From Clostridia bacterium (GTDB taxonomy: Bacteria; Bacillota_A; Clostridia; Christensenellales; Aristaeellaceae), in contig JAFZQK010000025.1 in the NCBI GenBank assembly GCA_017620455.1, forward strand, positions 16,800-80,799: a stretch of 64,000 bases of DNA, written 5' to 3'. The notes below the pieces were generated by a model, which was not told the DNA's origin, ran no database searches, and saw nothing but the letters and a program-made list of their open reading frames with translations. Every line of letters begins with the position of its first letter. The stretch's first letter is position 1. Shown here piece by piece: positions 32,091 to 56,361 of the stretch. A program made the translations under genes and the position numbers.

Positions 32091-32375
32091 ATGAAGGGGC
32101 CGCAGCCCCTTCATCAATGATCCGCAGCGGCGGCATGTACGCCGCGGGGCCCGAAGCGCCCGGAAAACGATCCTGTGGATCATTTTCAGCGGAGGGCGGG
32201 CGGAAGCCCCGGGCAGGCAGTCGGTCATACCGCTTCCTCTATCAATTTTCGGCCGTAAAATGAGCGTTTCTGGGCATGTCTGCCCAGAAACGCCATTTTG
32301 CAGAAAATTGATGTACTCATCGAAAGACGGCTTTAGCTGGCTTTCGATGACAGTGTGTCGACTTTGTCGACACAC
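32091..32375. repeat. Multi-hairpin dispersed element, copy A
   Basis: Successive hairpins: H1 ATGAAGGGGC/GCCCCTTCAT with loop CGCA (32091-32114); H2 GCGGCG/CGCCGC (32127-32145); a variable region with GATCC/GGATC; H4, a long stem 32241-32312 (ATCAATTTTC with GAAAATTGAT, GTAAAATG with CATTTTGC, GCGTTTCTGGGCA with TGCCCAGAAACGC); H5 CATCGAAAG/CTTTCGATG (32318-32349); H6 GTGTGTCGAC/GTCGACACAC with loop TTT (32353-32375). The same order is found at 56119-56331 with compensating base changes. It fills most of the 430-bp gene-free stretch between two convergent transcription units. No coding sense and no transposase. Confidence 0.85.
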
Positions 32376-32377
32376 GA

Positions 32378-32401
32378 AAGCCCCCGGATTGCTCCGGGGG
32401 C
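32378..32401 (-). terminator. Terminator of the sugar-transport locus
   Basis: On the minus strand: GCCCCCGGA / TCCGGGGGC with a four-base loop, followed by TTTCG, about 24 nt after the last stop codon. Confidence 0.8.
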
Positions 32402-32423
32402 CTTGCTTTGTTCAGGGATTGAA

Positions 32424-33779
32424 TCAGTCGCCGTTGAACTCGTTGCACAGGCCTTCCCAAACGGGCATCTGGGCTTCGATCAGGGCAGCGGGATCGTTGC
32501 CGTAGACGTTCCACAGGAAGCCGTTGCCGATGATGTCGTTGTTGGTGCCCATGGCCAGGGTCATGTTGAAGGCGGAATGATCCGCTTCACGCAGCATGGC
32601 ATAGGTCTCGTACACAGCGCGGTCATCGGTGTAGTTCAGCTTGTTGCCAACCCAGGCATTCTCATCGTCATAGCCGGGGGTGGGGTTGGTCCACATGTCG
32701 TAGATGAAGGCCAGGTTCGCAGCGGTCTGGTCGTCATACACGTCGGGGATCAGGGTGATGTTATCGGACACAACGTGCACATACGTGTCGCCCTTGGGGC
32801 CGATGGGGAACGCAACGCAGCCCCACGGATCAGCCATATCAGCCATTTCGGAATTGTCGTTGAATCCGCCGTAGGTCTGGTACATATAGAAGCCGCAGTA
32901 GCCCTGCTTCCAGGCATTCTTGTACCAATCCCAGTTGGCGCCTTCACCGGCGGGAGCACCGTAGTTCAGCCAGGTTTCCTTGGCCCAGGTCAGGGCTTCC
33001 ATAGCCACGTCGCTGTTCATGACGGGCTGCAGCTTGCCTTCGTCGTCCGTGGCGAAGAACGCGCCGCCGTTGGAGAACACGGAGATGATGAGGAAGTCGG
33101 TGTTGTCGCCGATGATGCCGTAGATATCGTTGATACCGTCGCCATCGGTGTCACGGGTCAGCTTCGCCAGCAGTTCCACGAAGGCATCCCAGGTCCAGGT
33201 GCCAGCTTCCTGCATGTCGTAGATCTCGTTCCAGTCGATGCCGGCATCTTCCAGAACCTTCTTGTTGAAGTACAGGCACTGACGGGGTTCAGCTTCGCCG
33301 GCATAGACGCCGTAGGACTTGCCCTGCTTGGTGGTGAAGCCCAGGTCCTGCTTGTTCCACTTGTCGGCGCTCAGGTCAACCAGATCGTCCCAGGCACGAG
33401 CGCCGGCCTTGATGGCGTTGGCCACAGAGCCGGGCTCCAGGATGTAGAGGCGATAGGAGCCATCGGGCGCGGCCACGAAGTTGGTGAATTCGGTGATCTG
33501 GGAGCCCCAGTCGCCGCCCTGCTTCGCAACGATATGGCAGTTGTAGGTCTCATCCAGCCAATCGCGGTACGCATACAGCGCAGCCTGCTCTTCGGTGGGA
33601 TCTTCGGCGCGGGCGTCGCTGCCCACATCGCCAGACCAGTAGTCGAGGATGTAGATGGTGGCACCGCCAAAGTCAACGCCTTCGCGGACTTCCGGATAGC
33701 CTTCCGGAGCTTCCGCCAGCGCGGCAACGCTGACCAGCAGCAGCGCCAGCACCAGGAACAGGGAAACCAGTTTCTTCAT
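32424..33779 (-). CDS. Extracellular solute-binding protein (family 1, sugar-type)
   Basis: 451 residues from ATG 33779, chosen because AAGGAGG lies 8 nt upstream and the signal peptide follows directly. The signal peptide ends A-L-A-E-A and lacks a lipobox Cys, so the mature protein may be freely secreted or held by other means, unusual for a Gram-positive binding protein. Fold pattern of SBP_bac_1: early G-G-A-T-I-Y-I-L, the G-V-Y-A-G-E, W-T-W-D-A-F-V-E-L-L-A-K-L-T (hinge/sugar region) and a D-T-D-G-D-G-I-N-D-I-Y-G calcium-loop-like motif. Many Trp and Tyr suggest oligosaccharide binding. Last gene of the locus, 109 nt after the permease, with its own strong ribosome site, as expected for a highly expressed binding protein. 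Confidence 0.9.
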   Translation of the reverse strand: MKKLVSLFLVLALLLVSVAALAEAPEGYPEVREGVDFGGATIYILDYWSGDVGSDARAEDPTEEQAALYAYRDWLDETYNCHIVAKQGGDWGSQITEFTNFVAAPDGSYRLYILEPGSVANAIKAGARAWDDLVDLSADKWNKQDLGFTTKQGKSYGVYAGEAEPRQCLYFNKKVLEDAGIDWNEIYDMQEAGTWTWDAFVELLAKLTRDTDGDGINDIYGIIGDNTDFLIISVFSNGGAFFATDDEGKLQPVMNSDVAMEALTWAKETWLNYGAPAGEGANWDWYKNAWKQGYCGFYMYQTYGGFNDNSEMADMADPWGCVAFPIGPKGDTYVHVVSDNITLIPDVYDDQTAANLAFIYDMWTNPTPGYDDENAWVGNKLNYTDDRAVYETYAMLREADHSAFNMTLAMGTNNDIIGNGFLWNVYGNDPAALIEAQMPVWEGLCNEFNGD

Positions 33780-33888
33780 ATTGGGTTCCTCCTTTTTATT
33801 TTCCACGCATCCACCGTCTTCAGGGACCGGGTGCATGCATAGATTCGGTTTTTCATCCGGCTGGATACCGGATATCTCCACCTCTATT

Positions 33889-34896
33889 TTACTCCTTTGA
33901 GCCGGACATTGCAATACTTTCCACAAAAGTTCTCTGGGTGAAAATGTAAAGAATCACCAGCGGGATGCAGCAAATCAGCACGCCGATGGACACCAGCTGC
34001 TGCTGCCGGGCCGGGGGCACGATGATGGCCTTCTCGGCGTCCTGGGAGAAGTAGCGGCCCATACGGGTGAGGATGGAGGAGAGCTCGGTGGAGTAGATGA
34101 CCATGGTTTTGCTGATGAAATTGCGGGTGTAGAACAGGTCCGTCCACTGCCAGACGAAGGAGAACAGGAAGCAGCTGAGCACCGTGGGCATGGCGTCCGG
34201 CAGCATGATGGTGGTGAAGGTGCGCAGCGTGGAGCAGCCGTCCACGTACGCCGCCTCCTCCAGGGATTTGGGGATGCCCTTGAAATACTGCCGCAGCATG
34301 TAGATGTACAAGCCGTCCTTGAGGCCCATGCAGGTGGCGCTCATGAGCAGGTAGGGGGTCAGGTTGCTCAGCAGGTTCAGCGGCTCCCCGTTGAAGGTTT
34401 TGAAGATGCCGAAGATATCGAAGTAGCGGAAGTACATGTACAGCGGGGTGGCGATGGTCTGGGGCGGGACCACGATGGTGAGCACCACGCAGGCGAACCA
34501 GAACCGCTTGAGCGGGAACTCATACCGGGCGAAGCCGTAGCCCACCAGGGTGCAGGCGATCACCTGCAGCACGCTCACCAGGAGGGACGTCCATGCCGTG
34601 TTGATCAGCGACCGGGGGAAATTGGTCAGATCGAACACGATGGAGTAATTCTCCAGCGTCACGTTCCGGGGCAGCAGCACGATGGTGGAATCGTACAGGT
34701 CCTTTTCCTGCATCAGGCTGGTGCCGAAGCGGGTCAGCATGGGCTGGATGATCATGAAGCACAGTCCGAACACCAGCAGCCCGCGGACGATGGAGACCGT
34801 CCAGCGCTTGACGCCGGATTTGAACAGATAGCCTCCGCTCTTTTTGTTGGCGGAGCGTTTGTCGCTGCGCGGGAGCGATTCTGCCTTAAGTGTCAT
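33889..34896 (-). CDS. Carbohydrate ABC transporter permease (MalG-type)
   Basis: 335 residues, six predicted membrane helices after a basic N-terminal stretch of about 35 residues. The permease-ATPase coupling loop shows the EAA motif (S-L-E-E-A-A-Y-V-D-G-C-S-T, then I-M-L-P-D) near residues 225-250. Belongs to the CUT1 MalG/UgpE-like branch, which moves oligosaccharides with a shared ATPase such as MsmX (not in this window). Its start overlaps the previous permease by 11 nt; together they form a heterodimer served by the 451-residue binding protein downstream (inference from gene order). Confidence 0.9.
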   Translation of the reverse strand: MTLKAESLPRSDKRSANKKSGGYLFKSGVKRWTVSIVRGLLVFGLCFMIIQPMLTRFGTSLMQEKDLYDSTIVLLPRNVTLENYSIVFDLTNFPRSLINTAWTSLLVSVLQVIACTLVGYGFARYEFPLKRFWFACVVLTIVVPPQTIATPLYMYFRYFDIFGIFKTFNGEPLNLLSNLTPYLLMSATCMGLKDGLYIYMLRQYFKGIPKSLEEAAYVDGCSTLRTFTTIMLPDAMPTVLSCFLFSFVWQWTDLFYTRNFISKTMVIYSTELSSILTRMGRYFSQDAEKAIIVPPARQQQLVSIGVLICCIPLVILYIFTQRTFVESIAMSGSKE

Positions 34897-35860
34897 ACTG
34901 CTTCACCACCCTGTTGATAATGAAGGACGCGATGCCGATGAAGGCCAGCGCCACGCCGAAGTAGATCCAGCTCTCCGCCGTGCTTTCGCCGTACCGGGTG
35001 CGGGTAAACTGGGTGTTGATCCACTCCATGACCTGGTTGTCGTTTTTCATGAAGAAGTCGATGATGGTGTAGATGGCGTTCACCAGCAGCAGGGGGCTGA
35101 CCATGGGGAAGGTGATCTTCCAGAAGGCCTCCCAGGCCGTGCACCCTTCCACGTCCGCCGCCTCGTACAGGGAGGGGGAGATGGCGGACAGGCCGGAGAG
35201 GAACACGATGATCTGGATGCCGCTGGCCATGACGATATCGTAGATGGCGTCGATCATCTGGAACAGCACGTCGAACACGCCGCTGCCCACGCCGGAGACC
35301 ATCAGCAGATCCTGCAGTGCGCCGGAAATGTTGATGCCCGACTGGGCGGCGATCTCATCGGATACGCCCTGCAGCATGTTGTAGGTCAGCTGGCTTTCCA
35401 CGCCGGGCAGCACGCCGGAGGCCAGGATCACAGGCAGGAAGAAGATGGCGCGCGCCACGGTGCGGCCCTTGAACTTCTGGTTCAGGATGACTGCCACCAC
35501 GAACGCCAGCACCAGGGTAGCGATAGCGTTTACGGCCATGCGCCCGCATTCCTCCACCAGGTACTGGTTGAAGTACGGGTCCACGCCCATGGCGTATCTG
35601 TAGTTTTCAAAGTTATTCCAGGTGAGCTGATAGCCGTGGCCGGGAACCAGCACCACCTTGTTGAGGCTCATGATGACCGATTGGATCATCGGCTTCACCA
35701 TGAAGATGAGGAAGCCCAGAATGAACGGAAGGACGAAGAGCACGCCGGTGCGGGCGTTGCGGGAGCGCATGGTGTCGTAATTTTCATTGACGGGCAGCAA
35801 AGCCGATACGGATTCGCCCAGGCTCCAGCGCTCGCTTCTGTCTCTTTTCTTTCTGCTCAT
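34886..35860 (-). CDS. Carbohydrate ABC transporter permease (MalF/UgpA-type)
   Basis: 324 residues, six membrane helices; the first follows a 40-residue cytoplasmic lead. EAA loop: S-L-Y-E-A-A-D-V-E-G-C-T-A-W-E-A-F-W-K-I-T-F-P around residues 235-257. A loop of about 70 residues between helices 3 and 4 (S-Q-L-T-Y through F-Q-M-I-D-A) is longer than in typical UgpA homologues. The stop overlaps the next permease and the start overlaps the DUF5696 stop by 4 nt, so translation is coupled along the chain. Confidence 0.9.
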   Translation of the reverse strand: MSRKKRDRSERWSLGESVSALLPVNENYDTMRSRNARTGVLFVLPFILGFLIFMVKPMIQSVIMSLNKVVLVPGHGYQLTWNNFENYRYAMGVDPYFNQYLVEECGRMAVNAIATLVLAFVVAVILNQKFKGRTVARAIFFLPVILASGVLPGVESQLTYNMLQGVSDEIAAQSGINISGALQDLLMVSGVGSGVFDVLFQMIDAIYDIVMASGIQIIVFLSGLSAISPSLYEAADVEGCTAWEAFWKITFPMVSPLLLVNAIYTIIDFFMKNDNQVMEWINTQFTRTRYGESTAESWIYFGVALAFIGIASFIINRVVKQYDT

Positions 35861-38800
35861 TTTTTATCCCCTCCTTCCTCTGTTCCTGACGCTTGATCGG
35901 GCGGTGTCTCCGCGGCCGGGGCCTCTGCCGCCGGCTCTTCCGCCGCCGGCTCCTCCGCCGCCGGCTCCTCTGCCGGCGGCTCCGTGACCGGCTCGGGGAT
36001 CAGCACCTGGCCGGCGGGAACGGTGACGGCGCCGAACGGAACGTCCGCGTCGCTGAGGTTGTAGAAGATCACTTTTTCCAGGCCCTCGGGCAGCGGGGCT
36101 TCGCCGATGGCGGCGCTGTCCGGCGCCCAGCACATGCCCTGTACGTTGACGCCGTTGACGGCCAGCGGCGTGGTGCCGTGGTTGACGTAGCGCCGCGTGC
36201 CGTCCGCAAGGAGGATGATCTCGGCCGCCCCGTCGGCGTTCTCCGTCTTGGCGGTGCCCTTGGCGGGGATGGCGATGTCGCCCACCTTGATTTCCTTGTC
36301 GGTGCTGTTCACCCACAGATCGCCGTCCGGCAGCACCAGCACGTCCAGATCGATTTCCGCGGTCACCAGCTGATAGTTGCCGGCGCCGGTGTTGCGGCTG
36401 TTGGTGTTGTCGGTTTTCACCATGGCGTCGGTGAAGTTGGCGTACATGCGGCTGCCGTCCGGCAGGAAGACCACCGTGACGCCGGCTTCGGCGGGCTCCA
36501 GCACGCTGCTGTGGGCGGGGATCTCGGTTTCCCCTGCGGTGATCGCCGCGTCGGAGGCGTTCACCCAGACGCGGTTCCCGTCGCCGGGCAGCAGGAGATC
36601 CAGGGCCTGGTCGCCGCTGACGGGCAGCCAGTTCAGCGCGCCCACCGTGCGGGTGCCGGGCTTGAGATCGGCCTCCGTGCGGTTCAGGTACATGCGGCTG
36701 CCGTCTGCGCGGAAGATCACCTGCACCGGATCGGGATTTTCGGATTTGATCCAGCTTCTGGCGGGCACGGTCTCACCGTTCACCGGCAGGGCTTCATCCG
36801 TGCAGTTGACCAGCAGCACCGTGCCGTCCGCCAGGATCATGGCGTCCACGTTCTGCGTATCCCGGACGCGCACGTAGGTGCCGGGGTTGAGGACGGCCGC
36901 CTTGTCGACGTTGCCGTCTTCCTTGAAGGTATAGCCGTAATTGATGGCGGTATCGCCGTAATTGACGTACATCCGGCTGCCGTCCGGCAGGAGGATCGCT
37001 TCGGCCTGGGTATCGTCCGTGGCCCAGCGGTAGCTCCTGGCCGGGATCTCCAGGCCGCCGCTGACGGCGACCGCCTCGTCGGAGGCGTTCACGTACACGC
37101 GGGTGTGCTGCCCTTCCGGCAATTCGCTTTCCAGCGCGTCGGCGAAAATCACGTCGAAGATTTCACCGTCCTGAATGCGCACGGTGGAGCAGGGCCGGAG
37201 GGCGGTGTCGCCCGCGGTCAGGGAGACGGCGGTGAAGTTGACGAGGCTGCGGGCGCCGTTGGGCTCAAAGACAGCCTGGATCTTCGCGTCCTCCACGCCC
37301 TCCTGCTCGCGGACCACCAGATAGTCGCGGGCGGGGACCACGTCCCCATCGTCCAGCGTGTAATCGCCGCTGCCGTAGTTGACGTAAACGTCCGTGCCGT
37401 CGGCGTACGTGGTTTTGGTGACGCTCAGCGGCAGTTCCATGTGGCCGGTGATGCGCGTCCGGTTCAGCCCGGCCATCTCCCGCTGATAGCGGGTGATGGT
37501 GTCGATGGCCTCCTGGCGCCAGGCGCTGTAGCTGGCCCCGTAGTACGCGGTGTGCATCGTATCCTGCAGGATCTTGGCGTCTTCATAGAAGAAGGTGAAG
37601 TTCAGCCCGGCGCCGTATTCCACGCAGCGCAGCAGGTTGGTGCGCCAGTCGCTGGAAAGGTTGAGGGAGGGGCCCGTGTAATCCAGAGAGCCGTGAATGG
37701 CGATCTGGTAGAAGGGCACCGCGGCGTCCAGCAGGGAATAGCTGAAACCGCTCAGATCCATATCGGTGACGATATCGGCATAGGGGAGGGCGAAATCAAA
37801 TCCGTCGCGGATCATGATGCTTTCGCCGCTGTCCCGCGCCTGCTTCATCGTATCGATGTTCATCGTCTTGACGGTTTCGCGGGTGGTGGTGTTCCGGGGA
37901 TCGTAGTTGCCGCTGAGCAGATGGCCGATATCCCGGAACGCCACGCCGTAGGCGCCATTGTCCTTGAGCGCTTTGATCAGGTTGGAGGCGTTCTGCTGGG
38001 CGTAGTCGGGACGGGTGAGGTAATAGACGGCCTGATCGTTGTCTTCCGTGTAATAGATCTTGGAATACGGGGTGATCTCCACGATCTCCCGGGTGGTGAA
38101 CCGCGCCGCGTTAGCCCGGGGCGTGAAGCCCTGGAGGAGCTTGGTATCGTAGGCGAAAGCGGTGATGCCGTCGAAGTAGAGGCGCACGCCCTTCTCCTTG
38201 GCGTAGGCGATCAGGTCCTTCATGCCCTGGGCGCCGCCCAGCACGCCTTCCGCGTTGACGCTGGTGAGCACGTGCTGCCGGATGCCGCCGTTGCACCAGC
38301 CGGAAGCCCGGACGCTGATTTCCCGGATGCCCTGGGATACCAGATCGTCAATGATGGTTTTCATTTCGCTGAAGGTGGTGGTGGCCAGCACGCGCTGCAC
38401 CGGCAGGCCGGCGGTCACGATGCGCTTGTCGATGGCGCCCACCAGCTCCACGGATACCGGCATATCCTCGGAAGCGTCGTTTGCCAGCATTTCCGGATGA
38501 TTATCCCGCAGGTAATCGCCGTATGCGTTGGCCATGTCCACGTAGCTGTCGCTGTTGAGGAAGCGGTAGCGCTGCCGCACGGTGTCCTGCGGCAGGGATT
38601 TTTCATACATGATGACCATGCTGGGCGTTTTGTTGGAAACGTTGTACTGGTCCGAATGCAGCACGTGGTATTTGGCGCTGACGGTGTTGAAGCTGTTGGG
38701 ATGGAAAGCGGTGTTGATGCCGGGCTTGCCGTTGATGTCGGCCTTGATGCTGGCGTAGGAAGCGCCGCCCTCGATGATGCAGATGAACGAGCCGCCTTTG

Positions 38801-40668: not shown

Positions 40669-40682
40669 TCTACGTCACCTCC

Positions 40683-45786: not shown

Positions 45787-45807
45787 ACGGTTTCCCTCCT
45801 TTCTCCC

Positions 45808-48800: not shown

Positions 48801-49137
48801 CGATCTCGCTTTCGTCCCTGTCCCCGGTCCCCGCCGAGGGCAGGATCTCGAACTGATCCAGCGGCAGCGCGATGGGCTCCGCCGGATTCGCGTCCTGCGC
48901 GTCCTTGTACTGCGGCAGCGCGAGATACTTGCTGTAAGTCAGCTCGCTGCGGGATACGCCCTCCACGTCCGCGGTCAGATCCTGGTCCTGATACTTGGCG
49001 GAGAAGTTTTCTTCATCCCCGCCCAGCCGCACCAGAAGAACGATCGCGGCGACGACCACGGCGATGCCCAGCAGCCACCGGACCCACTTGTTCCCGAAGA
49101 ACCGGCCTGCCATGTCACGAAAGCGCTTCTTCTGCAT
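45808..49137 (-). CDS. Membrane-anchored solute-binding protein with two carbohydrate-binding-like modules
   Basis: 1109 residues, more than twice the normal length. ATG 49137 is preferred over 49143 because AGGGGAG lies 7 nt away from it. One N-terminal membrane helix (about 19-37) instead of a lipobox. Two beta-sandwich modules (about 95-310 and 325-480) share the V-P-E-S-G-W-Y-x-V/I phrase, a GW-Y pattern seen in CBM6/CBM35-like domains. A helical linker (about 480-620) leads into an SBP_bac_1 domain (about 620-1060; D-V-V-L-S-V-G-S-W, G-I-P-E-T-M-N-F-P-L-V-F-Y-R-K-D-V-L, W-W-A-D-A-E-T). The C-terminus is a Pro/Thr/Glu-rich tail. First gene of the nine-gene locus; inferred to catch a polymeric or long-chain glycan. 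Confidence 0.87.
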   Translation of the reverse strand: MQKKRFRDMAGRFFGNKWVRWLLGIAVVVAAIVLLVRLGGDEENFSAKYQDQDLTADVEGVSRSELTYSKYLALPQYKDAQDANPAEPIALPLDQFEILPSAGTGDRDESEIARVYTQDGDTVLFTGDGSFLQWKVSVPESGWYNVQIDYRALSPEAGGRGVDIERAVYIDYGQPSVDADGQPVLDENGQPVLNQKSPFSGASELMFTLLWHDQPFEKEEDRFDNQGNQRRARQEELFDWQKVAFRDSMGYVAEPYRFYFEAGKEHTIALRAVNEPMEIRSIELTAPQKFNTYEQYVAQVKQEHPESEQAGTSDQLVATIQGEDATRRSSPSLYPRYDRSSPSTEPYDVYHTILNYIGGDSWNNAGQWIEWPLNVPESGWYSITIKARQNHQRGAISCRSLYIDGKIPFGEVSSISFSYDTAWEMYTLSDQAGTPYRFYLPAGDHTIRLEATLGEMGSILQDMDDSIYRLNQIYRKILVLTGVNPDRFRDYNLESIYPEVIKGMDLESKRLFKLVDDTVAVTGQKSDRIAVAQTLAVQLEGFVNHTERITQTFSNFKDNITALGTSMQNMSETKLDIDLILVHGADYQVPKVNDGLTANAGNEVRSLAASYSVDYDALGNKYEGGDVLDVWITTGRDQSTILKTLIDQDFTPNYGVNVNVKLVVADTLLTAVVAGNGPDVVLSVGSWFPVNYALRHAVEDMTQFQARDYEFNGQQVHVKSFEEATALDIYERSALAPFQYRDEVVDPTHVGVYGIPETMNFPLVFYRKDVLEELGMAPESWDDLSDWHVLETWRGLIELLPTIQGENMTVGVPFPNINSLDTSVLNSMIYQQGGSIYDEFNIRTMIDTEEGVAAFKLYTSLYNDYGLPTIYDFVSRFRTGEMPIGVADYGLYNNLAVSAPEIRGLWDFTYFPGTLRTAEDGTTYLDNTVHSGGTCSMIIKTDNETIRQNAWTFVQWWADAETQVNFGREMESILGASASYTTANKKAMVQLGWSDKQLKVLQEQMAHTRGFPEIAGGYSTTRHMTNAIRRVINTKEDARETLLTYSKTINEEIRIKRQEFGLSTNAEELRQILASAEAASPAPPAEETGGEAPGETPLETPNETPGESQ

Positions 49138-49237
49138 AAGCATACTCCCCTGTCAAATTTGAAATTTACTGTGTTTGGTCAGCCACCGCTTTCGGAGCCG
49201 ATGATATGGTGATACGATAGTTCGAATTCCCCTATGA

Positions 49238-49266
49238 AATATACCTTAAATCTTTCTTTCTGTCAA
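49238..49266 (-). promoter_or_regulatory. Promoter of the nine-gene sugar-transport locus
   Basis: On the minus strand: -35 TTGACA (49266-49261), 17-bp spacer, -10 TATATT (49243-49238), leaving a leader of about 95 nt. No operator or catabolite box was convincing nearby. Confidence 0.8.
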
Positions 49267-49433
49267 TGAAAAATTGTTCCCGGCCGACGGGGAGCAGGGG
49301 CAAAAAGGCGGGCGGCGGGCACGGTTTTTCCGCACGATCCCCCTGAGACGGGCGGGAGGGGCCCGGAAAGGGGGAAAACCGGTTGTTTCCGATTAATAAT
49401 GCGCTCCCGGCGGGCGATTCTTCGGGAAAGGAA

Positions 49434-49462
49434 TTGCAATTCCCGGCCGGATCGGGTACAAT
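49434..49462 (+). promoter_or_regulatory. Promoter of the GH10 xylanase gene
   Basis: -35 TTGCAA (49434-49439), 17-bp spacer, -10 TACAAT (49457-49462). The rest of the 350-bp divergent gap shows no other clear signal. Confidence 0.65.
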
Positions 49463-49489
49463 AGAAGAAAAAACGGAGGGATGAAGAGC

Positions 49490-51022
49490 ATGAAGAAGAT
49501 CCTGTCCCTGATGCTGGTCCTGGCCCTGACGCTGGGATGCGTGCCTGCGCTGGCGGCGGGCGTTACGGTATATTCGTCTGATTTTACCCAGGGGCCCGAC
49601 GGCTGGGTGGCCCGCAGCATGGGCAGCGCCTGGATCACCGCCGAAAACGGCACCCTGCGCATCGAGGGGAGAGAAAGCGACTGGCATTCCCCGGGCCGGG
49701 ATTTCGATTTGAAGGAGGGCGTGCGCTACACCCTGCGGGTGCTGGTAATGCAGAGCGAAACGGAGCATGCGGATTTCATGATCTCCGTGGCGCATAAGCT
49801 GAACGGCCAGGAGACCTATGAAAACCTGGCTTTCGCCACGGTGAACCGCGGGGCCTGGACCACGCTGCAGTGCGAATACACCCCCGCGTATTTCGACAGC
49901 TATGTGCTGTATGTGGAAACCAAGGGCGCGTCGACGCTGAGCTATTCCATCAAGAATTTCGTGGTGGCGGCCCCCGACGGGATCCCCCGGGACGGGGAAG
50001 AGGCGGTGCAGCTGCCCATCCTTAAGGACGTTTACGCCGGCCAGTTCGATATCGGCATCGCCGTGCCCCAGTTCGTGATCCGCAACGGCGGCCCGGCCCT
50101 GGCGCTGGTGCAGGAGCAGTTCAATATCCTGACCCCCGAAAACGAGCTGAAGCCCGATTCGGTATTGGACGTGGCGGCCAGCAAACGCCTGGCCCAGGAG
50201 GACGAGACCGCGGCGGCGGTGCATTTCGACGCGGCCAAGCCCCTGTTGGATTTTGCCAAGGAAAACGGCATCAAGGTGCACGGCCACGTGCTGGTATGGC
50301 ACAGCCAGACGCCGGAAGCCTTCTTCCACGAGGGCTACGACCCGGCCAAGCCCTACGTGAGCCGGGAAGTGATGCTGGGGCGGCTGGAAAACTACATCCG
50401 GGGCGTCATGGAATACATGGATGAAAACTATCCCGGCGTGGTGGTGAGCTGGGACGTGGTGAACGAGGCCATCGACGACGGCGGGAATTACCTGCGGCCC
50501 TCCAACTGGACCAAGGTGGTGGGCGACGATTTCCTGGCCCGGGCTTTCGAGCTGGCCCGGAAGTACGCCCCCGAAGGCACCTTGCTGTATTACAACGATT
50601 ACAATACCGCCGTGTCCGGTAAGCTGATCAAGATCGTGAAGCTGCTGGAGAGCCTGATCCCCGAGGGGAACATCGACGGCTACGGCTTCCAGATGCACCA
50701 CAGCATCACTTACCCCGGCATCCGGGCCATCGAAAACTGCGTGGCGAAGATCGCCGCCCTGGGCCTGCGCCTGCGCATCAGCGAGCTGGACGTGGGCATC
50801 GACAAAAACGACGACGCCAGCCTGGAGGCCCAGGCCCTGCTGTACGCCCAGGTGATGCGTCTGGCCCGGAAGTACGCCGATCAGTTCGAGGCCGTGCAGA
50901 TCTGGGGCCTGACGGACAGCCTGAGCTGGCGCTCCGGGAATTTCCCGCTGATCTTCGACGGCGCCCGGAGCCCCAAGCCCGCCTTCTGGGCCGTGGCCGA
51001 TCCGGACAGCTATACGGACTGA
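49490..51022 (+). CDS. Secreted GH10 endo-1,4-beta-xylanase
   Basis: 510 residues from ATG 49490 (GGAGGG 9 nt upstream; the in-frame ATG at 49481 touches the ribosome site). Signal peptide to about residue 23, without lipobox. Residues about 25-160 look like a CBM22-type module (W-V-A-R, L-R-I-E-G-R, G-x-D-F-D-L-K). The GH10 barrel (about 175-510) shows N-E-L-K-P-D (218-223), H-V-L-V-W-H-S-Q, the acid/base in W-D-V-V-N-E-A (E326), the nucleophile in I-S-E-L-D-V-G-I-D (E432), and a W-G-L-T-D-S-L-S-W end. It cuts internal xylan bonds outside the cell. The divergent sugar-transport locus is a natural importer for the products. Confidence 0.94.
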   Translation: MKKILSLMLVLALTLGCVPALAAGVTVYSSDFTQGPDGWVARSMGSAWITAENGTLRIEGRESDWHSPGRDFDLKEGVRYTLRVLVMQSETEHADFMISVAHKLNGQETYENLAFATVNRGAWTTLQCEYTPAYFDSYVLYVETKGASTLSYSIKNFVVAAPDGIPRDGEEAVQLPILKDVYAGQFDIGIAVPQFVIRNGGPALALVQEQFNILTPENELKPDSVLDVAASKRLAQEDETAAAVHFDAAKPLLDFAKENGIKVHGHVLVWHSQTPEAFFHEGYDPAKPYVSREVMLGRLENYIRGVMEYMDENYPGVVVSWDVVNEAIDDGGNYLRPSNWTKVVGDDFLARAFELARKYAPEGTLLYYNDYNTAVSGKLIKIVKLLESLIPEGNIDGYGFQMHHSITYPGIRAIENCVAKIAALGLRLRISELDVGIDKNDDASLEAQALLYAQVMRLARKYADQFEAVQIWGLTDSLSWRSGNFPLIFDGARSPKPAFWAVADPDSYTD

Positions 51023-51045
51023 CGGCCCGAGCCGGCAGGAATACG

Positions 51046-51084
51046 ATGGCGCAGCCCGCGCGGAAAACATGCGGGCTGCGCCAT
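51046..51084 (+). terminator. Terminator after the xylanase gene
   Basis: Perfect 14-bp stem ATGGCGCAGCCCGC / GCGGGCTGCGCCAT with an 11-base loop. The tail TCTGTGTC is only weakly T-rich. Confidence 0.7.
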
Positions 51085-51170
51085 TCTGTGTCAAAAACGC
51101 TTCCAAATGAAGTCGGTATATCTTTTCCGGATCGGATCGCTTACAATCCTGCCTGAAAGGAGGGAAAAAC

Positions 51171-51917
51171 ATGGGATACAGAAACGCGCAGGACATCTTC
51201 CCGGAAGGGCTGCTGCGGCAGATTCAGCGGTACGTATCCGGGGAAGCCGTGTATATCCCCGCCCGAGAAGAAAGACGGGCCTGGGGCGAGACCTCCGGCT
51301 ATCAGCGATACATCCGGGAGAGAAACGAGGAGATCCGCGCGCTTTTCGCGGCGGGTCAGTCCATGGAAGATCTGATGGAAAAATACGCGCTGTCCTATGA
51401 TTCCGTCAAGCGGATCGTATACAGCAGAAAGGAGACGGCCATGCTGAAATACAGCGCCACCCTGTCCTCGGCCAGGGCGTATGCCCAGGCGGGCAAACTG
51501 GACGCCTGGATCCACCTGTACCTGAACCAGGACGGGCGGAACATCCCGTTTTCGGACGGGCTGAAGCTGATGGACAGGTACTATATCGCCCCGGCGCGGT
51601 TCCCGGCGCATTTCTTCCGGCGCTGCGCGGGGCCGGAGCCGGAAATGAAATACCGGATCGACCGGGACTGGTGGAACCAAAAGGTAGCGGAACTGGAAAA
51701 AGCCCTGCGGACGGAAGAGGACATGCCGCCGTTCATCGTTCATTATACCGAAGGGGGATTTGAACTGAACGACGGGAACCACCGCCGCAAGGCCTGTGAA
51801 AATTTGGGGATCGACACGGTCTGGGCCATCGTATGGATCACGGAAAAGGCCGAACTGGACGATTTCATGGAAAAATACGGGGAGTACGTGAAGGACTGTA
51901 CGGTAATCCGCAGATGA
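51171..51917 (+). CDS. CD3324-family HTH protein fused to a ParB-like domain
   Basis: 248 residues. N-terminal about 85 residues match the CD3324-family helix-turn-helix proteins (M-G-Y-R-N-A-Q-D-I-F-P, L-L-R-Q-I-Q-R-Y-V-x-G, Y-I-P-A-R-E, a recognition-helix-like Y-A-L-S-Y-D-S-V-K-R-I-V-Y). The C-terminal part (from about residue 91) is a separate domain with L-N-D-G-N-H-R-R-K-A, a ParB/sulfiredoxin-type D-G-x-H-R motif that usually binds nucleotide. A second ATG at 51441, the start of that domain, has its own AAAGGAG 6 nt upstream inside the frame, so the domain may also be made alone. GGAGG precedes the main ATG. Probably a DNA-binding regulator; target unknown. Confidence 0.75.
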   Translation: MGYRNAQDIFPEGLLRQIQRYVSGEAVYIPAREERRAWGETSGYQRYIRERNEEIRALFAAGQSMEDLMEKYALSYDSVKRIVYSRKETAMLKYSATLSSARAYAQAGKLDAWIHLYLNQDGRNIPFSDGLKLMDRYYIAPARFPAHFFRRCAGPEPEMKYRIDRDWWNQKVAELEKALRTEEDMPPFIVHYTEGGFELNDGNHRRKACENLGIDTVWAIVWITEKAELDDFMEKYGEYVKDCTVIRR

Positions 51918-51918
51918 A

Positions 51919-52362
51919 TCAGAAAACGGCGCCGCCGGCGGAAAACAAGTCCTTCTCGGTGAGGACGCGGACACCGTGGTCCTTGAGCAGCTGGGCCGTG
52001 ATGCCGCTGCCGGGGACCAGCACGCCGGAAAAGGAGCCGTCGTAAACCTGCCCGCAGCCGCAGGAGGGGCTGTTGGCCTTGAGCACCGCGGCGCGGCACC
52101 CCGTCAGGCGGCAGAGCCCAAGCGTTTCCTCCGCGCCTTTTCGGTACGCGGCTGTGACGTCTTCGCCCGTCCGGCTGATCACCCGTCCGTTTTTTTGGAT
52201 CTCCGCCGGGGGCCGGGGCGTGGGCAGCCCGCCCAGCTGCTCCGGGCAGACGGGGATCAGTTCGTAGTTTTCCAAAAGCCGGACGGCCTCGGGGCACGCC
52301 CGGCTTTTGCCGTCGTACCGGCAGGCGACGCCCAGCAGACAGGCGCTGATCAGCACCCTCAT
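51919..52362 (-). CDS. DUF523 family protein
   Basis: 147 residues from ATG 52362. Typical DUF523: N-terminal S-A-C-L-L-G-V-A-C-R-Y-D-G-K, V-C-P-E-Q-L-G-G-L-P-T-P-R-P-P-A-E-I in the middle, and the Cys motif S-P-S-C-G-C-G-Q-V-Y-D-G-S-F near residue 100. Conserved Cys suggest an Fe-S or catalytic-thiol site; function not established. The start overlaps the deoD stop by 4 nt. Ends one base from the convergent CD3324/ParB-like gene. Confidence 0.9.
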   Translation of the reverse strand: MRVLISACLLGVACRYDGKSRACPEAVRLLENYELIPVCPEQLGGLPTPRPPAEIQKNGRVISRTGEDVTAAYRKGAEETLGLCRLTGCRAAVLKANSPSCGCGQVYDGSFSGVLVPGSGITAQLLKDHGVRVLTEKDLFSAGGAVF

Positions 52363-53063
52363 GCGATCTCCAGCGCGATCTCCATCATCTGGGTGAAGGT
52401 TTCGCGTACCTCCTGGGCCGTCAGGCATTCGCCGGTAAAGACGTTATCGGAAATGGTCAAAAGCGCCAGGGCGTTCTTGCCCGCCCGGGCCGCGGTCAGG
52501 TACAGGGCGTAGGCCTCCATTTCCACGCACAGCACGCCCAGGTCCTTGAGGATCTGGGTGGGCTTTACCTCGCTTTGATCGTAGAAGGTATCCGTGGAAT
52601 AGATGGGCCCCACGGGCATTTCCACGCCCATCCGCCGGGCGGCGGCCACGGCCTTTTCCAGCAGCGCATAGGAGCAGCACGGCCCCAGATTGCCCTTGAA
52701 GCCGAACTGGGCCCCGAAATTGGAATTGGTGTAGGCGCTCATGCCCGCCACCACGCTGCGCAGGCGCAGCCGGGGGGAGATCATGCCGCCGGAGCCCACG
52801 CGGATGATGTTCTGCACGTCGTACTGGGTGAACAGCTCCCAGGAATAGATGCCAATGGAGGGCATGCCCATGCCGCTGGCCATGACGGACACGCGCTTTC
52901 CCTTGTATTCGCCGGTGTAGCCCTGGATGCCCCGGACGTTATTGACCAGCACGGCGCGGTCCAGGTAGGTATCGGCGATGAATTTGGCCCGCAGGGGATC
53001 TCCGGGCATGAGGACGGTGGGGGCGAAATCGCCCTTGTTGGCGGTGTTGTGCAGGGTAGGCAT
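52359..53063 (-). CDS. deoD: Purine-nucleoside phosphorylase, DeoD type
   Basis: 234 residues, the usual size of the hexameric NP-I enzyme. It splits purine (deoxy)nucleosides with phosphate to base and (deoxy)ribose-1-phosphate. Motifs: M-P-T-L-H-N-T at the N-terminus, V-L-M-P-G-D-P-L-R-A-K (phosphate Arg), the M-A-S-G-M-G-M-P-S segment with I-x-S-W-E-L, I-R-V-G-S-G-G, and V-E-M-E-A-Y-A-L-Y with catalytic region L-T-I-S-D-N at the C-terminal third. AAGGAGGGATTCCC precedes the ATG. Complements pdp at the other end of the window. Cotranscribed with dut, the APH gene and DUF523 by overlaps and short gaps. Confidence 0.94.
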   Translation of the reverse strand: MPTLHNTANKGDFAPTVLMPGDPLRAKFIADTYLDRAVLVNNVRGIQGYTGEYKGKRVSVMASGMGMPSIGIYSWELFTQYDVQNIIRVGSGGMISPRLRLRSVVAGMSAYTNSNFGAQFGFKGNLGPCCSYALLEKAVAAARRMGVEMPVGPIYSTDTFYDQSEVKPTQILKDLGVLCVEMEAYALYLTAARAGKNALALLTISDNVFTGECLTAQEVRETFTQMMEIALEIA

Positions 53064-53102
53064 GGGAATCCCTCCTTTTTTGTTGTTAACAGCATATCAG
53101 AA

Positions 53103-53897
53103 TCAGAAAAATTCGTCCAGCAGCGTATAATAGCGCAGCTTCTCCCAGTCCGGGCGGACGCCCAGGAAATCGAACAGCCTTTCCGGCTTGAAGCCGGGTA
53201 CGGCATGCCCGTAATGGCCGTCGGTGTTGTGCCGGAGACTGCGGTAGCACAAGGCCAGATCCCGCCATTTGTCGGCGATGCCGGCGTCCCCCAGGTCGAT
53301 AAAGCCGCTGACCCGGTTCCCGTCAAGAAGGATGTTGGGCAGGCAGCAGTCGCCGTGGGAAAAGGCGGCTTCCAGGGGCGGCTTGTTGTCCTCCAGCCAG
53401 CGCAGCAGCTTTTCCGGGCTTTCAAACCCGCCGGGGCCGAAGGTTTCCGGCTCGCACCGGGAAAAATCCACCAGCCCGTTTTCCAGGCTGTACCGGGCGT
53501 GGGCCAGTTCCCCCTCCACGGACCGGCTTACGGGGCAGGCGGCGACGTCCACCTGCCACAGCATTTGAACGGCCTCCGCCAGCAGGGAGAGCAGCAGCTC
53601 CGGCTGATCCAGATAAACGGGATCGCAGGCCATTTTGCCCGGCACCCGGGTCATCAGCAGGTATTCCGTATCCCGGTCCTTTTCAAAGGCCAGGACGCGC
53701 GGGGCGGGCAGCCTGCCCTCCAGAAAGCGCATCACGCGCACCATGCCCTCGGTGAGCGGGCTGATCCTTCCGATTTTCAGCACGGCTTCCGGGAAGATGA
53801 GCACCCGGGAGCCGGACATGCCCGTTTCGTTGACGGTATACGCAAGCCCCTCCACCTGTGATCGGATCGCGGTGGGCAACAAAGAAAAGTCTGTCAT
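53103..53897 (-). CDS. APH(3')-type aminoglycoside phosphotransferase family protein
   Basis: 264 residues, exactly the length of APH(3')-IIIa. Kinase-like fold: ATP-binding Lys in V-L-K-I-G (K41), catalytic loop S-H-G-D-C-C-L-P-N (D183, N188), metal site [14 protein letters not shown] (D201), and the C-terminal phrase [15 protein letters not shown] that closely follows APH(3')-IIIa. The catalytic loop differs from the H-G-D-L-G-D-S-N of the resistance enzyme. It may confer kanamycin/neomycin-type resistance or act on another aminosugar; sequence alone cannot decide. It is embedded in a housekeeping operon (start overlaps dut stop by 4 nt) with no mobile element, which points to a long-resident chromosomal gene. 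Confidence 0.85.
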
Positions 53898-54337
53898 TTT
53901 TCCCCCGTGGAGCCGAAGCCGCCCCGGTCCGGCGAAGAGAGGAATTCCACCGTTTCCAGGGCCGCGTCCGGCATTTTTTTCATGATTCGGAACTGGCAGA
54001 TCCGGTCGCCTTTTTCGATGCGGGTATCCCGCAGGGCCACGGCGGAAAAAAACCATTGGTCGCCGTCCCCGCAGTAGCTTTCGTCGATGATCCCGATGGA
54101 ATTGGTCATTAAAACGCCCCATTTTTTGAACGTGGAGGACCTGGGAGCCACGTGGGCCTCATAGCCCCTGGGCAGGCGCATGGAGACTCCCAGGGGGATC
54201 AGCCGGTATTCCCCGGACCGCATCTCCACCGTTTCGGCGGCCCGCAGGTCGATCCAGTCCCCCTGGGGCAGCTTTTCCAGGGGCGGAAGGTCCGCGTGAT
54301 AGCGCACCTGAATGGTGAGCGGAGCCTTTTCCTGCAT
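53894..54337 (-). CDS. dut: dUTP diphosphatase
   Basis: 147 residues. Hydrolyses dUTP to dUMP and PPi, keeping uracil out of DNA and feeding thymidylate synthesis. All five trimeric dUTPase motifs: D-W-I-D-L-R-A (27-33), A-P-R-S-S-T-F (64-70), [10 protein letters not shown] with catalytic D85, G-D-R-I-C-Q-F (110-116), and R-G-G-F-G-S-T-G (138-145), which closes over the active site. I use ATG 54337 because AGGTGA lies 5 nt upstream; a GTG at 54346 would overlap that site. First gene of the dut-APH-deoD-DUF523 group. Confidence 0.93.
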
Positions 54338-54381
54338 CAAAATCACCTGTTCCTTTTACGAAATTGGTCTTACGGAAATGA

Positions 54382-54456
54382 AGTCCCCCTATTCAGAACG
54401 GTTTTCGAAAGGGGGCTGAGGAGGAAACGCTTTTGACGCAAAAGCGGTTCCCCCGG
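54382..54456. repeat. Hairpin family 2, copy 1
   Basis: Between yfbR and dut, both minus strand. Two stems: CCCCCT (54385-54390) / AGGGGG (54410-54415), and CGCTTTTG (54428-54435) / CAAAAGCG (54439-54446) extended by GG/CC pairs. Shares TTCAGA, TTTTCG-AAGGGGG and AAAAGCGGTTCCCCC with copy 2 at 61551-61622. Confidence 0.65.
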
Positions 54457-54473
54457 ATCACTCAACTTCCCCT

Positions 54474-55058
54474 TCACACCTCCGAAATCTCGTCCAGGGT
54501 CATGGCGAAGCCGGGCAGGCATTGGCTGATGAAATCCTGCACCTCGGGCAGGTCGATCTGATCCAGGGATTTTTTCACGGATTTCCGGGCGGACTCAAAT
54601 TCCTGATTGCCGTACTGCTTTTCCTCCAGGCATTTGATGTAGGCGCAGATCCGGTCCGCCGCCTTGACGATCTTCCACGCTTCGGCCGTTTCGTCGTGGG
54701 CGATGAGGGGGGTGTAATAATCCCGCAGATCGGGGGGCAGCATGGAAAGCAGCTTCTGGGCGGCGATGTCCTCCAGCTTGCTGTATTCGTTCTTGATGGC
54801 GGGATTGTGGTGCTTGATGGGGGTGGGCAGGTCGCCGGTGATCACCTCGCTGGCGTCGTGATACATCGCCAGGGCCATGATGTATTCGGCGTTGTATTCC
54901 CGGCCGTAGCGCACGTTGCCCATCACGGCGATGGCGTGGGCGATCATGGCGGCCTGCAGGGCGTGCTCCATGTCGTTTTCCGGCAGGGTATTGCGCATCA
55001 GGCCCCAGCGCTGGATGAATTTCATGCGGTTGATATAGGCGAAAAAATGATGTTCCAT
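54474..55058 (-). CDS. yfbR: HD-domain 5'-deoxynucleotidase YfbR
   Basis: 194 residues from ATG 55058 (AAGGAG about 9 nt upstream). HD phosphohydrolase that removes the phosphate from deoxynucleoside 5'-monophosphates. Motifs: R-W-G-L-M-R-N-T (17-24), E-N-D-M-E-H with metal ligand H32, Y-H-D-A-S-E (H67, D68, E71), G-D-L-P-T-P-I-K (75-82), and a distal D (K-A-A-D-R-I). Together with dut, mazG, pdp and deoD this window is rich in nucleotide sanitising and salvage. Divergent from thiT; its leader overlaps the -35 of the thiT promoter. Confidence 0.92.
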   Translation of the reverse strand: MEHHFFAYINRMKFIQRWGLMRNTLPENDMEHALQAAMIAHAIAVMGNVRYGREYNAEYIMALAMYHDASEVITGDLPTPIKHHNPAIKNEYSKLEDIAAQKLLSMLPPDLRDYYTPLIAHDETAEAWKIVKAADRICAYIKCLEEKQYGNQEFESARKSVKKSLDQIDLPEVQDFISQCLPGFAMTLDEISEV

Positions 55059-55071
55059 GTTTGTATTCTCC

Positions 55072-55099
55072 TTGACAAACGGCACTTGCGTGCTATAAT
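55072..55099 (+). promoter_or_regulatory. Promoter of thiT
   Basis: -35 TTGACA (55072-55077), 16-bp spacer, -10 TATAAT (55094-55099), just upstream of the TPP aptamer. Confidence 0.82.
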
Positions 55100-55109
55100 G
55101 TGTTTCGTG

Positions 55110-55200
55110 CATCCGCTGGGGGCGCCGCGCAAAGCGGCTGAGAGAGAACCCTTGGAACCTGTGTAGATCATCCTACCGAAGGGAAGCGGCGCGCGGGCGA
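55110..55200 (+). promoter_or_regulatory. TPP riboswitch (THI element)
   Basis: Class hallmarks in order: GGGGGCGCC, GCGGCTGAGA, ACCCTTGGAACCTG, GATCATCCTACCG and AAGGGAAGCGGC. It senses thiamine pyrophosphate and would close the following terminator when TPP is abundant. Confidence 0.93.
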
Positions 55201-55223
55201 AAGCCCTGCGTTCACACCGTTTC

Positions 55224-55251
55224 CCACGGGCTTAAGGCCCGTGGGTTTTTG
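55224..55251 (+). terminator. Expression-platform terminator of the TPP riboswitch
   Basis: Perfect 9-bp stem CCCACGGGC (55224-55232) / GCCCGTGGG (55238-55246), loop TTAAG, followed by five T; 39 nt before the thiT start. Confidence 0.88.
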
Positions 55252-55290
55252 CATGCGGGGATGCAACAAAAGCAAACGGAGGTAAGCAAC

Positions 55291-56055
55291 ATGTTTCCAT
55301 TCCTTGGATCGGCCCTGGCCGAAAGCGTATCGACGGTGACCGAAGCGGCCACGGCGACGGAAATCGCCACAGCCACGGAAATCGCCACGGTGACGGAGGC
55401 GGCCGCGGAAGAAGCGGCGGGCCCCGCCATTTCCCTCTCCGTGGTGGAGAAGCCCTTTGCGAAGCTGGCGGAGGCCGGCTGGCTGCAGATCCTGGTTTTT
55501 GCGGCGCTGCTGGCGGTGGGCGTCCTGCTGCTGCGCAAGTCGAAGAAGAAGACGCGGTGGACCGCCAAAATGCTGGCTCACGCCGCCATGTCCCTGGCGC
55601 TGTCCTTCGTGCTGAGCTATATCAAGCTGATCAGCATGGGCGACGGCGGCAGCGTGACGGCGGGCAGCATGCTGCCGGTGATGCTGTTCAGCGTGAATTA
55701 CGGTACCGTGCCGGGGCTGTTCGTGGGCTTTGTGTACGCGCTTTTGCAGCTGGTGCAGAAAAATTCCGCCGTCGGTTTCCTGGGCTATCTGCTGGATTAT
55801 TTCCTGGCGTTCTCCGCGCTGGGGCTGGCGGGCGTCGCCAAGCGCCTGCCCAAGCAGTGGGGCCTGTATCTGGGCATGCTGCTGGCGATGCTGGTGCGCT
55901 ATGCGTGCCATACGGTATCCGGCATCGTGATCTATCACGTGAACCTGTGGGGCAGCCTGCTCTATAACAGCTACATGGTGGCCGAGATCGTGATCTGCAT
56001 GATCCTGGGCGCCATGGTGGGCCAGCGCATCCTGAAGCTGATGAAGGAAACCTGA
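55291..56055 (+). CDS. thiT: Thiamine ECF transporter S component with Thr/Glu-repeat N-terminal extension
   Basis: 254 residues from ATG 55291 (GGAGGT 7 nt upstream). The C-terminal about 170 residues are ThiT: six membrane helices, with the loop S-Y-I-K-L-I-S-M-G-D-G-G-S-V-T (L1 region), the M-L-F-S-V-N-Y-G-T segment and Y-x-L-D-Y-F-L-A-F, which line the thiamine site; ECF-T-contact small residues lie in helix 1. The N-terminal about 80 residues are extra: a hydrophobic start, a low-complexity A-T-V-T-E-A-A / A-T-A-T-E-I repeat stretch, and one membrane helix (about 64-84) with a Lys-rich stop. This stretch resembles the tandem repeat of the long ABC permease at 43040-44851. The TPP riboswitch supports the substrate. 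Confidence 0.9.
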   Translation: MFPFLGSALAESVSTVTEAATATEIATATEIATVTEAAAEEAAGPAISLSVVEKPFAKLAEAGWLQILVFAALLAVGVLLLRKSKKKTRWTAKMLAHAAMSLALSFVLSYIKLISMGDGGSVTAGSMLPVMLFSVNYGTVPGLFVGFVYALLQLVQKNSAVGFLGYLLDYFLAFSALGLAGVAKRLPKQWGLYLGMLLAMLVRYACHTVSGIVIYHVNLWGSLLYNSYMVAEIVICMILGAMVGQRILKLMKET

Positions 56056-56118
56056 CGCGGCCGCCCTCGCCTCCCCGATGGGGAAGAACGCCGGCGTGTG
56101 GGAAAACTCCGGGAAAGG

Positions 56119-56331
56119 ATGAAAGGGTCGCAACCCTTTCATCAACGATCCGCAGCGGCGGCATGTACGCCGCGAGGAGCAGTCGGGACGACTGCTTCCT
56201 CTGTCAATTTCCGGCCGCAAAATGTGCGTTTTCCTATGAAAACGCCATTTTGCAGGAAATTGATGTGTCGAACGGAAGGACGGTTTTCCGGCCTTCCGTT
56301 CGCAGGCCGGTGAAAATGTTTTTTCACCGGC
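56119..56331. repeat. Multi-hairpin dispersed element, copy B
   Basis: Same order of hairpins as copy A: H1 ATGAAAGGGT/ACCCTTTCAT with the same CGCA loop (56119-56142); H2 GCGGCG/CGCCGC (56155-56173, identical in sequence); H3 GAGGAGCAGTCG with CGACTGCTTCCTC; H4 56204-56263 (TCAATTTCC with GGAAATTGA, GCAAAATG with CATTTTGC, GCGTTTTC with GAAAACGC, loop CTAT); H5 CGAACGGAAGG/CCTTCCGTTCG (56269-56302); H6 GCCGGTGAAAA/TTTTCACCGGC (56306-56331). H6 contains a T-run and can serve as a terminator. It fills the gap between thiT and the convergent RqcP gene. Confidence 0.85.
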
Positions 56332-56361
56332 TTGCCGCCTCTCCGATGAGGGAGGCGTTTT

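What the first reader, a model, noticed from the sequence alone, without database searches (positions are those of the whole stretch)
32091..56331. Two copies of a multi-hairpin element with compensatory stem changes
The elements at 32091-32375 and 56119-56331 share an order of five or six hairpins. Seen directly: H1 is ATGAAGGGGC/GCCCCTTCAT in one and ATGAAAGGGT/ACCCTTTCAT in the other, both with loop CGCA, so two G-C or C-G pairs became A-T or T-A on both arms. H4 shows CAATTTTC/GAAAATTG versus CAATTTCC/GGAAATTG. The apical stem differs in length (13 versus 8 bp) but stays paired. H5 and H6 keep position but have quite different paired sequences. The H2 region is nearly identical in primary sequence. 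Paired-side changes imply selection on a folded RNA (or cruciform), not simple repeat decay. Neither copy carries a gene, and both lie where convergent units meet.
Basis: partly seen in the sequence, partly recalled or inferred. Interest (0 to 1): 0.78.

Follow-up and report, generated by a model that had tools for sequence, protein, structure and literature searches.

The report
Mobile hairpin element inserted into terminators
The two hairpin-rich stretches are copies of a small gene-free jumping element of rumen and gut bacteria that lands on the hairpin marking a gene's end, duplicates that hairpin on both sides of itself, and keeps its own folded shape by matched changes in its stems.

Summary
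Both stretches are copies of a ~250-320 bp, gene-free repeat with six hairpins. It gives 27 matches in the nearest genome (some copies give two) and occurs in 24 of 29 genomes of the genus. It is a miniature transposable element (MITE). Its ends (CAGACTGTCGACAAAG type) match the left ends of IS1182-family transposons of the same order. Many copies sit between direct duplicates of a whole intrinsic-terminator hairpin, mostly about 20-34 bp depending on the target. An empty site for copy 1, with one hairpin and no element, exists in a relative whose neighbouring gene is 97% identical. Two IS1182 elements, one with an open transposase frame, show the same whole-hairpin duplication. Stem covariation is strong: 157 double-changed pair cells against 37 in shuffles. 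IS1272 (IS1182 family) is reported to replace or partly delete such hairpins; whole-hairpin duplication was drawn as an alternative pathway in PMC5678879. Whether the folded strand that matters is RNA or single-stranded DNA, and what it does, is not settled here.

The parts
32035..32058 (.). Left copy of the target terminator hairpin, AAAGCCCCCGGATTGCTCCGGAGG; on the - strand it is followed by a U-rich tract
   Evidence: single copy at the empty site L302
32059..32376 (+). Whole element, copy 1 (ends inferred to within 1-2 nt)
   Evidence: between the duplicated hairpins; empty site; model R1 136.5 bits, E 5.6e-38
32061..32076 (+). Left terminal inverted repeat, CAGATGATCAACAAAG (12 of 16 to CAGACTGTCGACAAAG)
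   Evidence: compare IS1182 ends
32091..32114 (+). H1, stem ATGAAGGGGC/GCCCCTTCAT, loop CGCA
32127..32145 (+). H2, stem GCGGCG/CGCCGC, loop GCATGTA
32146..32216 (+). Optional branched module between H2 and H3
   Evidence: the pattern search found 7 places with it in the loci held, this one included
32217..32239 (+). H3 region (weak stem in this copy)
32241..32312 (+). H4, long stem ATCAATTTTC/GAAAATTGAT with GGCCG internal loop and apical stem
32317..32350 (+). H5
32353..32375 (+). H6, terminal hairpin carrying the right inverted repeat
32377..32400 (.). Right copy of the target terminator hairpin, AAAGCCCCCGGATTGCTCCGGGGG
56068..56084 (.). Decayed left duplicate of the terminator hairpin, CGCCTCCCCGATGGGGA
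   Evidence: score 24, 99th percentile of swapped pairs 20.5; end-free score 23, 99th percentile 22, highest control 31
56085..56335 (+). Whole element, copy 2 (left end approximate)
   Evidence: 158.6 bits, E 2.3e-44
56119..56142 (+). H1, stem ATGAAAGGGT/ACCCTTTCAT, loop CGCA
56155..56173 (+). H2, loop GCATGTA
56174..56201 (+). H3, GAGGAGCAGTC/GACTGCTTCCTC
56204..56263 (+). H4 with GGCCG internal loop
56269..56302 (+). H5
56303..56334 (+). H6
56336..56357 (+). Right terminator hairpin followed by TTTTTTATT

Best explanation
The two stretches are copies of a non-autonomous DNA transposon (MITE) of Christensenellaceae-like Clostridia, moved in trans by an IS1182-family transposase. The transposase joins the element to the target at the two feet of a palindrome, normally an intrinsic terminator, one foot on each strand. 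Repair then copies the whole hairpin, so the target duplication is the hairpin itself and varies in length with it. The cuts fall inside the A/T tracts, so much of the left A-tract and right T-tract ends up outside the pair. Transcripts from either side should therefore cross the element before they reach a hairpin with a full U-tract, and the element becomes part of the 3' UTR while termination is kept. Inside, H1-H4 form a fold kept by compensatory change, with conserved loops, which I take to be selected as a folded single strand (RNA or transposition-stage ssDNA). Shown: repeat family, ends, hairpin duplication, empty site, covariation, split tracts. Inferred: transposase in trans, cleavage at the hairpin feet, read-through transcription, function of the fold.
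For: Copies: 27 matches at E<=1e-3 in G001 and matches in 24 of 29 genus genomes. End pattern CAGNNTRTCGAMAAA: 46 places in G001 against 0 for the reversed control; 14, 30 and 6 in G023, G016 and G025 against 1 each. The same element end sits beside different terminators. Hairpin duplication: 20 of 24 copies with both ends set (4 of 28 mis-set ones dropped) exceed the 99th percentile of swapped flanks; end-free, 60 of 137 do, and 48 exceed every control. Of the 53 repeats scoring above 28, 48 fold with at least 5 bp, mean MFE -15.9 against -5.1 for shuffles. Empty site for copy 1. IS1182 loci with the same left end in 5 of 5 (13-15 of 16 bp; 0-1 of 300 shuffles as good), two with exact 33-bp and 22-bp hairpin duplicates; the L088 transposase scores 431 bits on NF033551, cut-off 270. 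Split tracts: runs of 3 or more A (left) in 25 of 53 and T (right) in 23 of 53 outside, 3 of 53 each inside. Covariation: 23 of 41 pairs, 157 cells against 36.9 +- 6.0 shuffled, slid controls at most 26.
Against: 77 of 137 copies do not pass the 99th percentile for a flanking duplicate, and copy 2 shows only a decayed one. Copies are not all independent: some loci of different genomes are the same insertion (for example L033, L034, L054). IS1182 transposase over the family cut-off was found in 2 of 29 genus genomes, one of them with a stop codon, with partial matches in 13 more and none in G001, which is 73% complete; at E<=1e-60 a relative of L088 was found in 3 of 297 genomes of the order, two with a stop. 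So the mobilising enzyme was not found in most carriers. Right ends match less well (10 or 11 of 16 in L088, L089 and L331). L332 has unlike hairpins at its two ends, L333 no evident one on the left, and the left flank of L331 is off the contig. Strand preference is not clear by events on the tree. No sigma-70-like promoter was found at either window copy.
Confidence: 0.86

Rival explanations
1. A host structured RNA family (for example a 3'-UTR regulator or RNA-stability element) that spreads by recombination; the flanking hairpins are just terminators of the neighbouring genes.
For: Strong covariation and conserved unpaired segments; + strand folds better in 81 of 101; elements lie at gene ends in most copies with callable neighbours (88 of 101 have at least one gene ending at the element).
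Against: Flanking hairpins are direct duplicates, identical in 22 of the 48 strongest, and single at the empty site; terminal repeats match IS1182 ends; 33 of 101 copies are convergent and 13 divergent.
Confidence: 0.06
2. The element is a MITE, but the compensatory stem changes come from templated arm-to-arm repair of imperfect palindromes during replication, not from selection on a fold.
For: 86 both-sided WC-to-WC events against few intermediates (16 to G-U, 10 to A-C, 17 to other mismatches); G-U and A-C events are not clearly different in number.
Against: The asymmetric GGCCG internal loop, the AATCCG linker and the RCRTGYR loop of H2 (32 of 40 in A2; 7 of 40 have another loop class) are kept while stems vary, and recur in diverged relatives; repair would tend to make internal loops symmetric. 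Folding energy differs between strands.
Confidence: 0.25
3. The element moves as single-stranded DNA or is recognised as a folded strand (as integron attC sites and IS200/IS605 ends are, recalled), and the fold is the substrate.
For: Covarying fold; strand bias in folding energy; orientation bias to the neighbouring gene, 75 of 101 right-hand genes pointing at the element.
Against: Terminal inverted repeats plus a duplicated target point to DDE-type strand transfer at both ends, and the related transposase has DDE domains; L088, a 1,544-bp element with a 1,440-bp gene, has no room for the fold.
Confidence: 0.2
4. Chance similarity of two intergenic hairpin regions.
For: None.
Against: Matches in 24 of 29 genus genomes.
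Confidence: 0.001

Closest known systems
IS1182 family of insertion sequences (NF033551)
   Same: Left terminal 16 bp match in 5 of 5 IS1182 loci read in the order; insertion at a hairpin with the whole hairpin duplicated in 2 of them.
   Different: No transposase gene; the interior is a conserved multi-hairpin fold instead.
IS1272 and TnSha1 of staphylococci (IS1182 family; passages seen of PMC4923244 and PMC5678879)
   Same: The target is a hairpin, often a transcription terminator, without sequence consensus.
   Different: Those papers report partial deletion or replacement of the hairpin and no target duplication; here the hairpin is duplicated whole, the outcome PMC5678879 drew as its alternative pathway b (joining at the 5' feet).
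bcr1 of the Bacillus cereus group (recalled; only a search listing seen)
   Same: Recalled as a short mobile repeat with a conserved RNA fold.
   Different: Different ends, host and target as recalled; not compared here.
BOX, RUP, ERIC and similar bacterial repeats (recalled)
   Same: Short, gene-free, many copies, hairpin-forming; BOX is recalled as modular.
   Different: Not recalled to duplicate terminator hairpins; not compared here.
Group IIC introns (recalled)
   Same: Recalled to insert next to intrinsic terminators.
   Different: No Rfam family match at gathering score at either copy and no gene; the target is duplicated.

Membership tests
MITE (miniature inverted-repeat transposable element) | Short, gene-free, repeated | tested here: met
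   about 250-320 bp; 27 matches in G001, 24 of 29 genus genomes
MITE (miniature inverted-repeat transposable element) | Terminal inverted repeats shared with an autonomous transposon | tested here: met
   IS1182 left ends 13-15 of 16 in 5 of 5 loci; right ends 10-15 of 16, weak in 3 of 5
MITE (miniature inverted-repeat transposable element) | Target-site duplication and empty site | tested here: met
   20 of 24, 60 of 137; empty site for copy 1
MITE (miniature inverted-repeat transposable element) | Mobilised in trans by the partner transposase | not testable with these tools
   needs a transposition assay; partner enzyme not found in most carriers
IS1182 family | Encodes an IS1182 transposase | tested here: not met
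   no such gene between the duplicated hairpins of either window copy; related by ends and target only
IS1182 family | Insertion at palindromes | tested here: met
   48 of 53 duplicated segments fold with at least 5 bp
Any Rfam 15 RNA family | Score at or above the gathering threshold | tested here: not met
   no match at either copy; matches below threshold only
Structured non-coding RNA | Covariation beyond controls | tested here: met
   (no phylogenetic null was run; tree-based counts)
Structured non-coding RNA | Transcript | not testable with these tools
   no RNA-seq here

The most novel reading that the evidence does not exclude
A MITE superfamily of one bacterial order carries a conserved folded RNA (H1-H4, with H2 loop RCRUGYR and a GNCCG internal loop) as cargo. 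By landing between a terminator hairpin and its U-tract in both directions, it makes itself a transcribed 3'-UTR module without breaking termination. The fold, not a protein, is what the element is selected for: it either regulates or stabilises host transcripts or is read by the transposase, so that transposition goes hairpin to hairpin by structure.
Probability: 0.28. Interest if true: 0.82.

Novelty: new variant of a known kind. Interest (0 to 1): 0.6.

Why it matters
In the passages seen of PMC5678879, whole-hairpin target duplication is drawn only as an alternative pathway for an IS1182-family element. Here it is seen in dozens of copies, with an empty site, so structure-led target choice by a DDE-type transposase becomes testable. 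The split of the A/T tracts suggests how a mobile element can fill gene ends without losing termination and be transcribed by its hosts. The conserved fold gives a large natural set of a structured element that has no Rfam 15 match at the two window copies.

Tried and rejected
Known RNA family: Rfam at gathering score and at E<=1 gave no match above a family threshold at the copies. Transposase by PF13751 in 6 genomes gave no consistent partner; PF01609 led, through a search for the element end, to L088 and L089. Partial hits were read as possible autonomous copies with inserted genes; those I read were truncated elements, contig ends, copies with the optional module, or a sister repeat. A first neighbour-gene call by longest ORF mis-called the window's own genes and was dropped for a codon-scored one. 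Concerted swapping of whole stems was considered: of 58 branches with double changes in four helices, 47 carry one pair only, so block replacement is not the main route. A promoter at the copies: none found by the consensus scan. The copy-2 empty site was sought, but the matches to the flanking gene were only 64-77% identical, G001 had none, and I did not read those loci.

Rows dropped. One search found 87 places by pattern; 28 had both ends, 4 mis-set ones were dropped. For the alignment, 53 of the 87 passed length and edge filters, 46 remained at 93% identity, and 6 of these (2 false, others truncated, with deletions or altered H1) were left out of A2. H1 was left out of the 41 pairs because its two classes align out of register; H2 was also left out of the tree counts. 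Of the 249 rows plus the two window copies went into; rows cut off by contig ends, partial or reverse-strand H4 rows and some weak full-length rows were left out. Of the 152 copies kept, 101 had usable neighbours.
Full report
What was checked. Each folds far better than shuffles of itself, z -10.6 and -11.8. No Rfam 15 family reaches its gathering score there.

Copies. The window's own assembly is not held; the nearest held genome, G001, shares 35% of the window's sampled words. A 166-bp piece of copy 2 finds 27 matches at E<=1e-3 in G001 and matches in 24 of 29 genomes of the genus. Of the first 100 of these loci, searched with the covariance model, 84 of the 85 titled to Clostridia or Christensenellaceae relatives (rumen, goat, sheep, deer, buffalo, chicken and others) match and none of the 15 titled to other phyla does. 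The pattern chose these loci, so 84 of 85 is not a rate. In the order, the model finds 19 of 297 genomes, in 13 of 125 genera (a lower bound). Of 14 diverged or distant loci read, 11 show an H2 loop RCRTGYR after an AATC linker by pattern (a twelfth, L256, has it after CATC), and 11 hold GNCCG downstream, though in L258 that match lies in H3, not H4.

It is mobile. In G001 the end pattern CAGNNTRTCGAMAAA occurs 46 times, its reversed control 0 times. The same element end abuts different terminators. Where both ends could be set, the left and right flanks share a hairpin that abuts the element or nearly so: own-pair score median 44.5 against 12 for swapped pairs, 20 of 24 above the 99th percentile. 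Without setting ends, 60 of 137 copies exceed the 99th percentile and 48 exceed every control; the 53 repeats scoring above 28 have median length 27 bp (15-44, including some overrun), and 48 of 53 fold with at least 5 bp. Of the 48 strongest, 22 are identical in both copies. The other 77 of 137 show no duplicate at that level. Copy 1 of the window shows it plainly: AAAGCCCCCGGATTGCTCCGG(A/G)GG on both sides. In L302 (G001), whose neighbouring gene is 97% identical, the same place holds one such hairpin and no element. Copy 2 scores only 23 end-free, just above the 99th percentile of 22 and below the highest control, 31.

Its partner. Searching transposase loci for the end led to L088 and L089, IS1182-family elements of about 1.54 kb (NF033551, 431 and 358 bits, cut-off 270); the L089 frame has a stop. 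Their left ends match the MITE end at 13 of 16, and each lies between exact duplicates of a palindrome, 33 bp and 22 bp. Three more IS1182-like loci of the order have left ends 13-15 of 16. Against this: right ends are weak in three of five, L332 has unlike hairpins at its two ends, L333 none evident on the left, and matches over the family cut-off occur in only 2 of 29 genus genomes. That the enzyme works in trans is inferred.

What the insertion does to termination. The duplicated segment takes the hairpin but little of the A- and T-tracts. Outside the pair, runs of three or more A (left) or T (right) occur in 25 and 23 of 53; inside, in 3 and 3. In copy 1 the terminator scan finds the - strand terminator only at the left hairpin and the + strand terminator only at the right one. 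So transcripts from either side should cross the element before a full terminator. This is read from sequence; no RNA data were available. In 75 of 101 copies the right-hand gene points at the element, and in 46 of 101 the left-hand one does; the reason for this bias is not known, and it sets the better-folding + strand antisense to the more frequent neighbour, which does not favour a simple 3'-UTR role of the + strand RNA.

The fold. On 40 sequences (of 46 representatives) and 41 pairs of H2-H4, 95.2% of cells pair, 23 pairs change on both sides, and 157 cells do so against 36.9 in shuffles and at most 26 when slid. Most branches with double changes change one pair only, not a whole stem (47 of 58). 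Two facts limit the claim of RNA selection: intermediates are rare, as templated repair of palindromes would also give, and the strand test is mixed. The + strand folds better in 81 of 101 dereplicated copies (flank control 52 of 92, p 0.08), and G-U cells exceed A-C cells 38 to 14 in H3-H4, but on a tree the events are 18 to 11. The kept asymmetric internal loop and unpaired linkers argue for a selected fold. Whether RNA or ssDNA is open.

Relation to the literature. Passages of PMC4923244 say that TnSha1/IS1272 inserts into hairpins, several confirmed as terminators, with partial deletion and no target duplication, and that a review reports palindrome targeting by some IS1182 members. Passages of PMC5678879 describe hairpin replacement by IS1272 and draw a pathway b in which joining at the 5' feet may duplicate the whole stem-loop. 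The present elements fit pathway b. Ten text searches listed no paper that by title or abstract start describes this element; most subscription papers are not in that library and lists were capped, so earlier description is not excluded.

Verdict. It is a new variant of a known kind: an IS1182-type MITE with whole-terminator duplication and a conserved folded interior.

Noticed in passing
window 32146-32216; L062, L063, L064, L071, L043, L120: An optional branched module (CGAAGCGCC..AAAA-hairpin-TTTT-AGCG) sits between H2 and H3 in some copies and in place of H2 in L043 and L120; its inner hairpin varies.
   Followed up: partly
L060, L061, L072, L073: A sister repeat shares the H2 motif (AATCCGCAG..GCATGTA..CGAGGA) but has different hairpins after it; in L061 its left end is CAGACCGTTGACAAACC beside a small palindrome.
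   Followed up: partly
L008: The two flanking hairpins agree better as reverse complements (20 of 22 by eye) than as direct repeats (17 of 22), as if one copy had been inverted.
   Followed up: no
G001 contig ends (L101-L105, L107-L111, L113, L115, L116): Many contigs of G001 break inside the element, so this assembly undercounts it.
   Followed up: no
window 19676-19829 and 55108-55201: FMN riboswitch, and a TPP riboswitch upstream of a ThiT-like thiamine transporter gene at 55249-56055.
   Followed up: no
101 copies: Orientation bias: the right-hand gene points at the element in 75 of 101 copies; unexplained.
   Followed up: partly
H2 loop in alignment A2: First and last loop bases swap together, G..A in 28 and A..G in 5 of 40 sequences, a possible non-canonical pair.
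   Followed up: no
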